A DNA stretch of 64,000 nt from Lachnospiraceae bacterium (GCA_016286555.1 JAEETA010000002.1:93307-157306); one strand, 5' to 3'; shown: positions 19,573 to 24,562, counted from the stretch's first letter. Numbers and translations are program-made. Notes: a model not told the origin generated them from the sequence alone.

Positions 19573-20856
19573 TCAAGTTTTCTCTGGAATTATCACCGTA
19601 GCAATAAAGAAACCCTCCCCGTGCTCTGTCGTGAACATTCCGTTCATTTTATCCACAGTTCTTTTGACGTTCATAATTCCTATCCCATGTGACTGATCTG
19701 ATTCGTTTTTTGTAGAAATCAGTCTTCCTCTATAATCAACTATTTTTGTTTCATCGCAAGCATTTTCTATTCGAATGTAAAGAACTCTTTTCTCGTATCG
19801 AATCAAAATGCTGATTAATCGATTATCTCCTTCTATTTCAGTCACTGCTCTGATTGCATTATCCAGAAGATTTCCGATAATGATATTCATTTCATATGCA
19901 GAGATCCCCACACTATCTGGGACGGCTATCTTTTTTTTCACAAGAATCCCGTTTGCTGCAGCTTCTCGGATCTTATAATTCAATATTCCATCCAGACCAA
20001 CAACCCCAGTCGAAACCTGCGGAGTGGCATCCGCCAGTTCCCGCGCAGCGTATCCAATATATTGAAGGATCTCGTCCGTTTTTCCAAGTCTTGCCAGTTC
20101 CCCAATTTCCGCCAGATGATTTTTCATATCATGACGAAGTGACCGGATTTTTCGATCATTTTCCCTACTATCTGTGATCAGTTGCTCATAAGCTTTGGTC
20201 TGCTCTAAAAGAAAGATCTGATCCTTTTCTTTTTGTGCATTGGAAATAAGAGTTTCGTATAGAAAAAAGACCATAAAATCCAGGGACAGAAAAGTCCCTC
20301 CGATAAACAGGCAAGCTTTTTGTGATAATTCCTCCTCGAGTGTTAGTATGATAACCGTTCCGACTCCGGAAAGAAGGATCAAAAGAAGGAAGTAGAAATG
20401 AATTTGCAAAGTCTCTCCATCTCTCAATTGATGGAGCTGCTTTACCAGCAATGCCGATAGAAGAAACAAAATGACAGAGATAATGGATGCCAAATAATTT
20501 ACTGAAGGTTTATCAGACAATTTTGAGAATAGAAAACCCGCAGAAAAATCTACGGCTATACTAACTGCCCACAAAAAGAATGCAAAGAACAGTTTTTTTC
20601 TGCACCCGGCCTTTACAGGAAGTGCTACGATTAAGCAACTTAAAAACGTAGCCACAACATTTATATATACGTTCTGAGCAAGAATATATGCGATCAGCGG
20701 AATCAGGTAAGCTGCTAAATAGGCAGCACTCCTTTTCCGCTTGCTATCGATATCGTTGGCTAACGGAAGAAAAAAAATCCCGGTATAAAACACCAAAATT
20801 GCTGTTCGAAAGGCTTCTATGACAGCAGAAAACAACATTTCAGATACGTTCATCAC
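19573..20856 (-). CDS. AgrC-like GHKL sensor histidine kinase
   Basis: Six or more TM segments; SLRHDMKNHLAEI; EMNIIIGNLLDNAIRAV (N box); HGIGIMNVKRTVDKMNG. Confidence 0.9.
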   Translation of the reverse strand: MMNVSEMLFSAVIEAFRTAILVFYTGIFFLPLANDIDSKRKRSAAYLAAYLIPLIAYILAQNVYINVVATFLSCLIVALPVKAGCRKKLFFAFFLWAVSIAVDFSAGFLFSKLSDKPSVNYLASIISVILFLLSALLVKQLHQLRDGETLQIHFYFLLLILLSGVGTVIILTLEEELSQKACLFIGGTFLSLDFMVFFLYETLISNAQKEKDQIFLLEQTKAYEQLITDSRENDRKIRSLRHDMKNHLAEIGELARLGKTDEILQYIGYAARELADATPQVSTGVVGLDGILNYKIREAAANGILVKKKIAVPDSVGISAYEMNIIIGNLLDNAIRAVTEIEGDNRLISILIRYEKRVLYIRIENACDETKIVDYRGRLISTKNESDQSHGIGIMNVKRTVDKMNGMFTTEHGEGFFIATVIIPEKT

Positions 20857-21580
20857 GCGTCCCCCACATTTCCAAATAGTTCATGATCTTTTTCTTTGCT
20901 TCCTCACGATAAGGAGACGTAATCGAAATAGTTCTTTGATCCATCATAACCACTTCCCGGATCCGATAGGCACTGATATATCTGATATTAATAACATAAG
21001 ATTGGCCGATTCGCATAAAATACTCCGGCATCTTTTCAATTTCGTTTTTCAACTTACCACGAAAAGAGATCAGATTCCCGGAACAAAGATGTATTTCCAG
21101 ATTTTTGTCTTTGCTTTCCAAATACAATATGTCCCCGAAAGGAACAAAACCTGTCATCCCACGTTTCCCATATGTATACTTCTCCGTACCGTCTGAACAA
21201 AAATCAACTAATTTGTCAAGAGTAGCATAAACTCTGCTTTCCGTCATCGGCTTAATCAGAAAATCATACGGGTGAACTTGAAACAACTCCATCGCATAAT
21301 TTGTTTTTGACGAGATATAAATAATCTGAAGCTGCTCATTTTTTAAAGATTCTCTAATAAATTTCCCGACCTCAACTCCGTTTGCTCTGGATAACTCTAT
21401 ATCCAGAAAGAGAATAGTGGGAATAATCCCTTTCTTCAGATCCGAAATCAGAGATTCACCATCATACCAGACCAGGCACTCCCCCTGAATACAGTGCCTC
21501 TCAAAATAGCCTAAGATCATCTGTTCCATTTGAGAACACACTGTTTTTTCGTCATCGCAGATGCCAATCGTAAAATACAT
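20840..21580 (-). CDS. LytTR-family response regulator (AgrA-like)
   Basis: MYFTIGICDDEKTVC receiver start with AGGGGG RBS; LFLDIEL; LytTR domain FMRIGQSYVINIRYISAYR. ORF track extends to 21670. Confidence 0.9.
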   Translation of the reverse strand: MYFTIGICDDEKTVCSQMEQMILGYFERHCIQGECLVWYDGESLISDLKKGIIPTILFLDIELSRANGVEVGKFIRESLKNEQLQIIYISSKTNYAMELFQVHPYDFLIKPMTESRVYATLDKLVDFCSDGTEKYTYGKRGMTGFVPFGDILYLESKDKNLEIHLCSGNLISFRGKLKNEIEKMPEYFMRIGQSYVINIRYISAYRIREVVMMDQRTISITSPYREEAKKKIMNYLEMWGTRDERI

Positions 21581-21679
21581 TTTGAAGCCCCCTAACAACA
21601 GTATCATAATCCATTTGAAGTGCTTGATACCTAGAAAACGTAGATGCTGATAATGCCCTGTAGGCCGCATTTTGGTAAA

Positions 21680-22237
21680 TCAGTTGTTCTTCAAATGCCG
21701 ATCATAAACCTTATTTTGTAGTTCTCCTAGAATCAGTAATACCATCTCTACACCCACACAGCAAACCAGAACAAAGGAATCGTCTGTTCTCCTTGTAATA
21801 CTCAGTCCCAAAAATACCACTAAGTAAACCAGCAATATTGCTCCAGTGCGGATTCTGAAAATCTCTTTTTCCTCCGCTGTAAGTCGATTCTCGGAATTGT
21901 CAACCGGCATCAGCCATAGAATAAATCCGATAGAAAAGACGAAAATCAAAAACTGGAAATATATTGACAGATGAACTGTCTTAAAGAGCCATAGGACGAT
22001 CACAAAAATCATAGCAGACACGAAAGCACAGCCTTTCCTTGTTCTCATATGAAAACCGCCGGCATTTTGCCTTAACGGAAATAAAATCAGGCAAAAAGCC
22101 ATGCCTTTACCGATTTCGCGAAATAGGCCGGCGATAATGGTGGCTACCAGCATACCAAATATCATGGATTTTACCATTTCTTTCCCAAAAAAATATATTT
22201 CTTTTTGCTCATCTATTGTCATATCATCAAATTCCAT
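21680..22237 (-). CDS. accessory gene regulator B (AgrB)-like peptidase
   Basis: Polytopic; RQNAGGFHMRTRKGC contains the His-x6-Cys pair of AgrB. Likely start MEFDDMTIDEQ at 22237. Confidence 0.9.
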   Translation of the reverse strand: MEFDDMTIDEQKEIYFFGKEMVKSMIFGMLVATIIAGLFREIGKGMAFCLILFPLRQNAGGFHMRTRKGCAFVSAMIFVIVLWLFKTVHLSIYFQFLIFVFSIGFILWLMPVDNSENRLTAEEKEIFRIRTGAILLVYLVVFLGLSITRRTDDSFVLVCCVGVEMVLLILGELQNKVYDRHLKNN

Positions 22238-22281
22238 TTTTCCATACCAGCCTTTCCCCAACTGAAAACAACCGATTATCA

Positions 22282-22318
22282 AAACAAGCCATCGGAAAAA
22301 CCTTCCGATGGCTTGTTT
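22282..22318 (-). terminator. hairpin/terminator between the lipoprotein gene and agrB
   Basis: AAACAAGCCATCGGAA-aaacc-TTCCGATGGCTTGTTT. Confidence 0.7.
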
Positions 22319-22356
22319 CCAAAAACTCGATTACCGCTTAAAGATGACTTTCGTTA

Positions 22357-23430: not shown

Positions 23431-23490
23431 TTTCCCATTTTTGAGTCGTCGAAAGCAAAGTCAGGTCACTCATCCCAATTCTGTCAAGCA

Positions 23491-24264
23491 TCAGTAAATG
23501 AAATACCTGCCGGACACACTGACCGTGGAATAAGCCTCTGACAGAGTAACGCTATGAACTCCATAATAACTATTGTTGTAATTGCAATCGACAATACGCA
23601 CCATATCGGTTGTACGATCCACATAGTCCAAACTCAGATAATGGCCGAGATTATGTCCTCCATAATAACCCAATGCTCCAGTCTTTGCATGCAATACAAC
23701 CGGTTTGCAATTTGTCAATGATGTTGCAATCGCCTGTTCAAACTGCGCCTCTGTCTTAGAAGCTCCCGTAGAATATACATAACTGGAATATCCACTGGGC
23801 TTATAAGTATTAAGTGCGTCCGCTACCTGATATACATACAAAGATCCCTGACTGTCAACATTGTACGCTGTGTCTATGGTAGAAATCTTAGCCGCATCTG
23901 TTGAGCCGGGAACATTACCTGCTGCCCCCATACCGTATAGGCTCTGCAACACAGTTGTCGAACCACAGTTATAGGTTTTGGTTTGTTGGACATTTGTCAC
24001 ATATTGATAGCACACATTGCCTCCACCGCCCCTCGTTCCGACACGATTGGTTGCGTATACATTTTCCAGGAAATCAATTGCATACTCTGCCCCATAATCA
24101 GATAACATCATCTGGAATTGCTGATCTTTTTCATACTCTTCATACACAGCAGAAAGATAATCCGGAATGATCAGTTTGGAGGCCTGACCGGCTTCAAAGG
24201 ACAATTTACCAACTCCTGAAAAAGCAAGTGCTAAGCAAAAACCTAAAATAGTACTCTTAACCAT
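23491..24264 (-). CDS. secreted C39-like (papain-fold) peptidase in the agr locus
   Basis: Signal peptide-like N-terminus; VQQTKTYNCGSTTVLQSLYGMG, GGHNLGHYLSLDYVD, IVDCNYN (Gln/Cys, His, Asp motifs). Confidence 0.8.
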   Translation of the reverse strand: MVKSTILGFCLALAFSGVGKLSFEAGQASKLIIPDYLSAVYEEYEKDQQFQMMLSDYGAEYAIDFLENVYATNRVGTRGGGGNVCYQYVTNVQQTKTYNCGSTTVLQSLYGMGAAGNVPGSTDAAKISTIDTAYNVDSQGSLYVYQVADALNTYKPSGYSSYVYSTGASKTEAQFEQAIATSLTNCKPVVLHAKTGALGYYGGHNLGHYLSLDYVDRTTDMVRIVDCNYNNSYYGVHSVTLSEAYSTVSVSGRYFIY

Positions 24265-24314
24265 AGTTTACCTCCTCAAAGAATAATCGCAATCTTTTCC
24301 GCGAAAACCAGGCA

Positions 24315-24452
24315 TTACTTTTTCTTCAAATTCTTTACAGCTTTTGTCATTTTCGGCTGATACGTAAAAAACGGGCACGCCCCGCTGGCATAATGTTTTG
24401 CCACTGCCACTACCAATATCTTTTCAAGATTACTCAACTTTTTGTTTTTCAT
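24315..24452 (-). CDS. AgrD-like cyclic (thio)lactone autoinducer precursor, 45 aa
   Basis: Own translation: MKNKKLSNLEKILVVAVAKHYASGACPFFTYQPKMTKAVKNLKKK. Amphipathic leader, small-residue + Cys core and YQPK tail as in clostridial AgrD peptides; RBS AAAGGAGGAA upstream. Not in the ORF track. Confidence 0.88.
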   Translation of the reverse strand: MKNKKLSNLEKILVVAVAKHYASGACPFFTYQPKMTKAVKNLKKK

Positions 24453-24532
24453 TTACTGATTCCTCCTTTAAAAGATGTGGCCGTCTTCATCGACCTGTTT
24501 ATTGTTTTATCATATATAAACACCCGGATCGC

Positions 24533-24562
24533 AAGAGGCGAAATTTGCCGCTAAACAGGCGA
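24533..24562 (-). promoter_or_regulatory. candidate LytTR/AgrA-type operator: TCGCCTGTT-N12-TCGCCTCTT
   Basis: Two 9-bp direct repeats (8/9 identical), 21-bp period, abutting/overlapping a TTGCGA -35-like element upstream of agrD. Confidence 0.6.

What the first reader, a model, noticed from the sequence alone, without database searches (positions are those of the whole stretch)
19573..24562. agr-type quorum-sensing locus with an unannotated AgrD-like peptide predicted to yield a CPFFT thiolactone ring
The 45-aa peptide at 24315-24452 (minus), MKNKKLSNLEKILVVAVAKHYASGACPFFTYQPKMTKAVKNLKKK, was found by reading the intergenic region. It has the AgrD layout: amphipathic leader, small residues before one Cys, a 5-residue core and a polar tail. 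ACPFFT-YQPKM resembles the clostridial pattern ...ACLWFT-HQPEEP. An AgrB with the GGFH...C pair, a LytTR regulator and a GHKL kinase lie on the same strand. By analogy the ring would be Cys-Pro-Phe-Phe-Thr with a short N-terminal tail.
Basis: partly seen in the sequence, partly recalled or inferred. Interest (0 to 1): 0.82.

Follow-up and report, generated by a model that had tools for sequence, protein, structure and literature searches.

The report
agr signalling locus carrying a protease
A gut-type bacterium carries a complete but uncharacterised cell-to-cell signalling system of the known 'agr' kind, whose small signal gene sits at the head of a gene set for an exported protease and a lipoprotein instead of next to its processing enzyme.

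Summary
The 45-aa ORF at 24315-24452 (-) has a strong ribosome-binding site and matches the AgrD model TIGR04223 (28.8 bits, cut-off 19). AgrB, a LytTR regulator and a GHKL kinase follow on the same strand. In 28 AgrD-like peptides from this and related genomes, Cys or Ser lies exactly five residues before a [YHNSF][QE]P motif, so a CPFFT ring is the expected product; the ring itself and the N-terminal tail remain inference.

(1) A secreted papain-fold cysteine peptidase and a beta-propeller lipoprotein lie between agrD and agrB. (2) A strong terminator-like hairpin (-32 kcal/mol, z -7.2) separates agrD-peptidase-lipoprotein from agrB-regulator-kinase. (3) A 9-12-9 bp direct repeat of LytTR format lies upstream of agrD (suggestive only). 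(4) The genome has a second, conventional agr locus (ring CPLML). AgrD and AgrB lie within 300 bp in 53 of 61 pairs surveyed; here the gap is 2.1 kb.

Verdict: a new member of the agr family with an unusual layout, probably controlling its own exported protease, as Fsr controls GelE/SprE. Real, of moderate interest, not a new kind of system.

The parts
24591..24613 (-). terminator-like hairpin after the traX-like gene; upstream border of the agrD unit
   Evidence: 9-pair stem followed by TCTTTTTTTG
24533..24562 (-). candidate LytTR-regulator site: direct repeat TCGCCTGTT - 12 bp - TCGCCTCTT
   Evidence: equally good repeat in 56 of 2000 shuffles, so suggestive only
24509..24514 (-). -10-like hexamer TATGAT, 18 bases after the second repeat; no convincing -35
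   Evidence: sequence
24462..24467 (-). ribosome-binding site AGGAGG of agrD
   Evidence: sequence
24315..24452 (-). agrD, 45-aa signal precursor
   Evidence: TIGR04223, 28.8 bits, cut-off 19
24363..24377 (-). codons of the predicted ring Cys26-Pro-Phe-Phe-Thr30, followed by YQPK
   Evidence: position five before [YHNSF][QE]P in 28 of 28 AgrD-like peptides; ring itself inferred
23491..24264 (-). secreted papain-fold (C39-like) cysteine peptidase, 257 aa, signal peptide, Gln94/Cys100/His208/Asp226
   Evidence: relatives with PF13529; invariant residues; model pLDDT 88.7 and fold matches
22357..23430 (-). lipoprotein, 357 aa, predicted beta-propeller
   Evidence: lipobox LSGC; model and fold matches; paired with the peptidase in other genomes
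22281..22320 (-). strong terminator-like hairpin between lipoprotein gene and agrB
   Evidence: -32.2 kcal/mol, z -7.2, 0 of 200 shuffles; not listed by the simple scan
21680..22282 (-). agrB, likely real start ATG at 22237 (185 aa)
   Evidence: PF04647, 103 bits; GGFHMRTRKGC; 185-aa form in the collection
20840..21670 (-). agrA-like receiver-LytTR response regulator, likely real start ATG at 21580
   Evidence: PF00072 and PF04397
19573..20856 (-). agrC-like sensor kinase, seven N-terminal hydrophobic segments, H-box LRHDMKNHL, GHKL domain
   Evidence: PF14501, 75 bits; hydropathy

Best explanation
This is a complete agr-type quorum-sensing locus of a bacterium placed in the family Lachnospiraceae. 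AgrD is cut after Thr30 by AgrB and closed into a Cys-Pro-Phe-Phe-Thr thiolactone (inferred). The exported ring is sensed by the GHKL kinase, which activates the LytTR regulator (inferred from the families). The regulator most likely acts at the direct repeat upstream of agrD and switches on the agrD-peptidase-lipoprotein unit (inferred), so the signal precursor and an exported papain-fold protease rise together. The genes agrB-regulator-kinase lie beyond a strong terminator-like hairpin and are probably expressed at a lower level, by readthrough or from another promoter (inferred). Shown here: the genes, their family memberships, the gene order, the hairpin, and the regular pairing of this peptidase with a lipoprotein in other genomes.
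For: AgrD model match; AgrB, LytTR and GHKL matches; AgrB His/Cys motif and kinase topology; only two agrD and two agrB in the genome, each in one of two loci; ring spacing constant in 28 of 28 peptides; known clostridial rings of the same size, one starting Cys-Pro; hairpins bounding the agrD unit; 9-12-9 repeat in the format reported for LytTR regulators (PMC6193735); precedent of an agr-type system inducing an exported protease operon, Fsr and gelE-sprE (PMC3667150).
Against: No expression, product or binding data. agrD and agrB are 2.1 kb apart, unlike 53 of 61 pairs. The second AgrB of the genome could process this AgrD. The direct repeat is reached in 2.8% of shuffles and was not found convincingly at the second locus. 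The peptidase-lipoprotein pair occurs elsewhere without AgrB, so control by this agr system is inferred from position only.
Confidence: 0.72

Rival explanations
1. The agr system is genuine, but the peptidase-lipoprotein pair is a passenger module that happened to insert between agrD and agrB and is not a purposeful target of the signal, beyond sharing a transcript.
For: The pair exists without agr in several genomes (L037, L039, L042, L044). Only 2 of 397 sampled genomes of the family besides the window's own hold the peptidase, so it moves or is lost easily.
Against: It lies on the same strand, in one hairpin-bounded unit with agrD, with short gaps (50 bp between agrD and peptidase). In L038 the pair follows a GHKL/LytTR two-component system, and in L043 it is about 5.6 kb from an agrDB pair.
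Confidence: 0.2
2. The peptidase is part of signal production: it removes the AgrD leader outside the cell, cutting after the Gly-Ala in front of Cys26, as C39 proteases cut double-glycine leaders.
For: It is encoded directly behind agrD; its predicted fold matches a double-glycine leader protease among others (6mpz, E 3e-4); AgrD has SGA in front of the ring.
Against: The best fold matches are other papain-fold enzymes. Relatives of the peptidase mostly stand without AgrD. Other AgrDs have no Gly-Ala there, and the second agr locus of the genome has no such peptidase.
Confidence: 0.07
3. The 45-aa ORF is a decayed or non-functional agrD; the working signal of this kinase comes from the second agr locus.
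For: The ORF is 2.1 kb from agrB. The Pro common in the tail (QPKMP, QPKLP) is Thr here (YQPKMT).
Against: Clear family match, intact ring and YQPK motif, strong ribosome-binding site, open frame, no other AgrD in the locus.
Confidence: 0.05

Closest known systems
Clostridial agr systems (C. perfringens agrBD; C. difficile agrD1B1 and agrB2D2C2A2; C. acetobutylicum agrBD agrCA)
   Same: AgrD with a five-residue ring followed by a QP-type tail, AgrB with His/Cys, LytTR regulator and GHKL kinase; Cys-Pro start of the ring as in C. difficile [CPWII] (PMC12312760).
   Different: New ring sequence CPFFT; agrD separated from agrB by two exported-protein genes and a terminator-like hairpin.
Enterococcus faecalis Fsr with gelE-sprE
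   Same: An agr-type system near genes for an exported protease operon, which FsrA induces (PMC3667150).
   Different: There the signal is a nine-residue lactone and gelE-sprE is a separate operon; here the protease is a papain-fold enzyme in the same unit as agrD, followed by a lipoprotein; control is not shown.
Staphylococcus aureus agrBDCA
   Same: All four components; AgrB GG-x-H-x6-C motif; LytTR regulator using direct repeats.
   Different: Gene order, no RNAIII found or searched for specifically, no exported genes inside the staphylococcal locus.
Second agr locus of the same genome (G000:C24, L033 6176-10613)
   Same: AgrD 48% identical over 42 residues, AgrB, regulator and kinase related; exported small protein and lipoprotein genes upstream.
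   Different: agrD lies 82 bp before agrB; ring CPLML; the lipoprotein is of the solute-binding type; no peptidase.
C39-like papain-fold peptidases (PF13529; double-glycine leader proteases; phytochelatin-synthase-like Alr0975)
   Same: Predicted papain fold; conserved Gln, Cys, His, Asp.
   Different: The window's protein does not itself reach a Pfam model; it is free and secreted, not fused to a transporter.

Membership tests
agr quorum-sensing system | AgrD precursor with leader, Cys/Ser ring and polar tail | tested here: met
   TIGR04223 28.8 bits, cut-off 19; ring spacing as in 28 of 28 peptides
agr quorum-sensing system | AgrB membrane peptidase with catalytic His and Cys | tested here: met
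   PF04647 103 bits; GGFHMRTRKGC and four long hydrophobic stretches
agr quorum-sensing system | sensor kinase with multi-pass N-terminus and GHKL domain | tested here: met
   PF14501 75 bits; seven hydrophobic segments
agr quorum-sensing system | LytTR response regulator | tested here: met
   PF04397 44.6 bits and PF00072 40.1 bits
agr quorum-sensing system | agrD adjacent to agrB (usual, not absolute) | tested here: not met
   gap 2108 bp; 53 of 61 pairs within 300 bp, 6 at 1-5 kb
agr quorum-sensing system | regulator site of LytTR direct-repeat type upstream of the signal gene | tested here: inconclusive
   9-12-9 repeat present; 56 of 2000 shuffles do as well; genome-wide pattern uninformative
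agr quorum-sensing system | AgrB-dependent cyclic thiolactone that induces the locus | not testable with these tools
   needs mass spectrometry and reporter assays
C39-like papain-fold peptidase (PF13529) | match to the family model | tested here: inconclusive
   window protein: none; 6 of the 35 aligned sequences match PF13529, best E 4e-6
C39-like papain-fold peptidase (PF13529) | papain fold with Gln, Cys, His, Asp | tested here: met
   all four invariant in 35 sequences; model pLDDT 88.7; fold matches E 3e-6 to 3e-4
C39-like papain-fold peptidase (PF13529) | proteolytic activity | not testable with these tools
   needs enzyme assay

The most novel reading that the evidence does not exclude
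agrD has been uncoupled from agrB and made the first cistron of an exported effector operon (papain-fold protease plus lipoprotein partner), so that signal precursor and protease are produced in fixed proportion, with agrB served from a second, weaker unit; this would be one case of a wider habit of gut Lachnospiraceae of hanging exported-protein and lipoprotein genes on agr loci.
Probability: 0.2. Interest if true: 0.55.

Novelty: new member of a known kind. Interest (0 to 1): 0.36.

Why it matters
It gives a concrete, testable signal (cyclic CPFFT, with a sister signal CPLML in the same genome) and a concrete candidate output (a secreted cysteine protease) for a family of gut and rumen bacteria; a literature search with three terms found few papers that treat agr there. 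It lets one ask whether an agr signal and the protease it may control can be tied into one transcript, and whether AgrB can serve an agrD that is not its neighbour.

Tried and rejected
Chance ORF: rejected (TIGR04223 match, ribosome-binding site, only two AgrDs in the genome, one for each AgrB). A hidden AgrD closer to agrB: none; the gaps at 22283-22356, 21581-21679 and 19516-19572 show no AgrD-like ORF in the ORF list, and the genome scan finds only two AgrDs. Phage proteins for the two middle genes: no significant PHROGs match. Solved relatives of the peptidase by sequence: none. A short peptide gene shared in front of the peptidase in relatives: none. A regulon read from the direct repeat: near matches in the genome (36) are no more frequent than for the reversed control pattern (77), so nothing can be read from it. 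The same repeat at the second locus: not above chance. The impression that exported-protein/lipoprotein gene pairs are enriched at agr loci: 3 of 20 loci in the set looked at first, 1 of 19 in a fresh set, 0 of 39 controls, so not established; single exported-protein genes are somewhat denser near agrB (29 of 174 against 25 of 283 ORFs in the fresh set, p about 0.01, crude classifier, higher ORF density near agr not otherwise corrected).

Full report
Observation. The ORF at 24315-24452 (-) exists as described and reads MKNKKLSNLEKILVVAVAKHYASGACPFFTYQPKMTKAVKNLKKK. An AGGAGG ribosome-binding site stands 9 bases before its ATG. NCBIfam TIGR04223 (AgrD) matches residues 5-40 with 28.8 bits against a cut-off of 19. 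The genes downstream on the same strand include AgrB (PF04647, 103 bits), a receiver-LytTR regulator and a GHKL kinase. AgrB carries GGFHMRTRKGC, and the kinase has seven hydrophobic segments before its H-box. Whole-genome scans find exactly two AgrB genes and two AgrD genes, forming two loci.

Ring. In 28 AgrD-like peptides (from related genomes and this one), Cys (19) or Ser (9) stands exactly five residues before a [YHNSF][QE]P motif. The collection step allowed spacings of four to eight, so the constant spacing is not built in. The window peptide is CPFFT|YQPK; its sister in the same genome (L033 8848-9000) is CPLML|YQPV. A recent review lists C. perfringens [CLWFT] and C. difficile ANST[CPWII] (PMC12312760), so both a five-residue ring and Cys-Pro at its start have precedents. 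The tail length cannot be predicted from sequence.

What lies between agrD and agrB. The 257-aa protein (23491-24264) has no Pfam hit of its own. Its 46 relatives in the protein collection are 36-72% identical, and 6 of 35 aligned sequences match PF13529, Peptidase_C39_2. Gln94, Cys100, His208 and Asp226 are invariant. The AlphaFold model (pLDDT 88.7) matches papain-fold enzymes: phytochelatin-synthase-like Alr0975 (E 3e-6), interpain, a double-glycine leader protease (6mpz, E 3e-4) and cathepsins. It begins with a hydrophobic, signal-peptide-like stretch. The 357-aa protein (22357-23430) has a lipobox (LSGC) and a predicted beta-propeller (pLDDT 81.7 on a thin alignment). In other genomes the peptidase gene is followed on the same strand by a lipoprotein gene: L037, L039, L042-L045 (in L038 the following gene lacks the lipobox Cys but is related to the window's), and, where the peptidase is damaged or truncated, L041, L047 and L048. 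So the two form a module that also lives without agr. In L038 the pair follows a GHKL/LytTR two-component system; in L043 it is about 5.6 kb from an agrDB pair whose AgrD has Ser at the ring position.

Transcription units. The agrD unit is bounded upstream by the terminator-like hairpin of the traX-like gene (24591-24613) and downstream by a 17-pair hairpin at about 22281-22320 (-32.2 kcal/mol, z -7.2) in front of agrB. Upstream of agrD lies TCGCCTGTT-12 bp-TCGCCTCTT (24533-24562), the format reported for LytTR-family sites (PMC6193735), with a TATGAT 18 bases after the second repeat. An equally good repeat arises in 56 of 2000 shuffles, so this is a candidate only.

How unusual. Of 75 AgrD hits in 145 related genomes, 61 share a contig with an AgrB; 53 of these are within 300 bp, 2 at 300-1000 bp and 6 at 1-5 kb, among them this one at 2108 bp. 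The layout is rare but separation as such is not unique.

Mechanism. The best-supported reading is an agr circuit whose LytTR regulator drives the unit agrD-peptidase-lipoprotein, with agrB-regulator-kinase beyond an attenuating hairpin. The closest functional analogy is Fsr, which induces gelE-sprE (PMC3667150). The lipoprotein may anchor, guide or hold back the peptidase; nothing here decides between these. That the peptidase matures AgrD is possible (SGA in front of Cys) but unlikely, since its relatives mostly stand without AgrD and the second agr locus has none.

A wider pattern was tested and not established. Several agr loci of the family have exported-protein and lipoprotein genes beside them (the second locus here, G007, G018, G043, G053), some duplicated. 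With one classifier, gene pairs of this kind were found at 3 of 20 loci of the set looked at first, 1 of 19 of a fresh set and 0 of 39 control stretches. The lipoproteins are of several unrelated families.

Host. The window's genome is therefore placed in Lachnospiraceae by inference.

Verdict. A real, complete, new agr locus with an unusual gene order; a new member of a known kind, of moderate interest.

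Noticed in passing
relative genome G085 (same family): L112-L122: 13 AgrD-family peptides, none on a contig with an AgrB, and only two AgrB genes in the genome. At least eleven kinase and regulator pairs of one kind lie next to them, mostly as kinase-regulator-AgrD trios, so many signals may share one or two processing enzymes in trans.
   Followed up: partly
L033 6176-10613 (G000:C24, same genome as the window): Second agr locus: agrD (ring CPLML), agrB, LytTR regulator, kinase, preceded by a small exported Cys-rich protein and a solute-binding-type lipoprotein.
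   Followed up: partly
L043 16294-16500: AgrD-family peptide with Ser in place of the ring Cys (SSVGM|YQP or similar), next to agrB; would give a lactone.
   Followed up: partly
L140 1873-9573 (genome G043): Three near-identical lipoprotein genes of about 465 codons, with two related small exported proteins, arranged around an agrB.
   Followed up: no
L125 1978-2517 (genome G099): Two tandem agrD-like genes (CSFFV|HQPK and CTLFI|HQPK) 1.3-1.7 kb before an agrB.
   Followed up: no
L038 9504-9566: A 20-codon ORF with a ribosome-binding site (MYYSGTDWLDEIIKMLKGGK) between a GHKL/LytTR two-component system and a peptidase-lipoprotein pair; a small linear peptide or chance.
   Followed up: no
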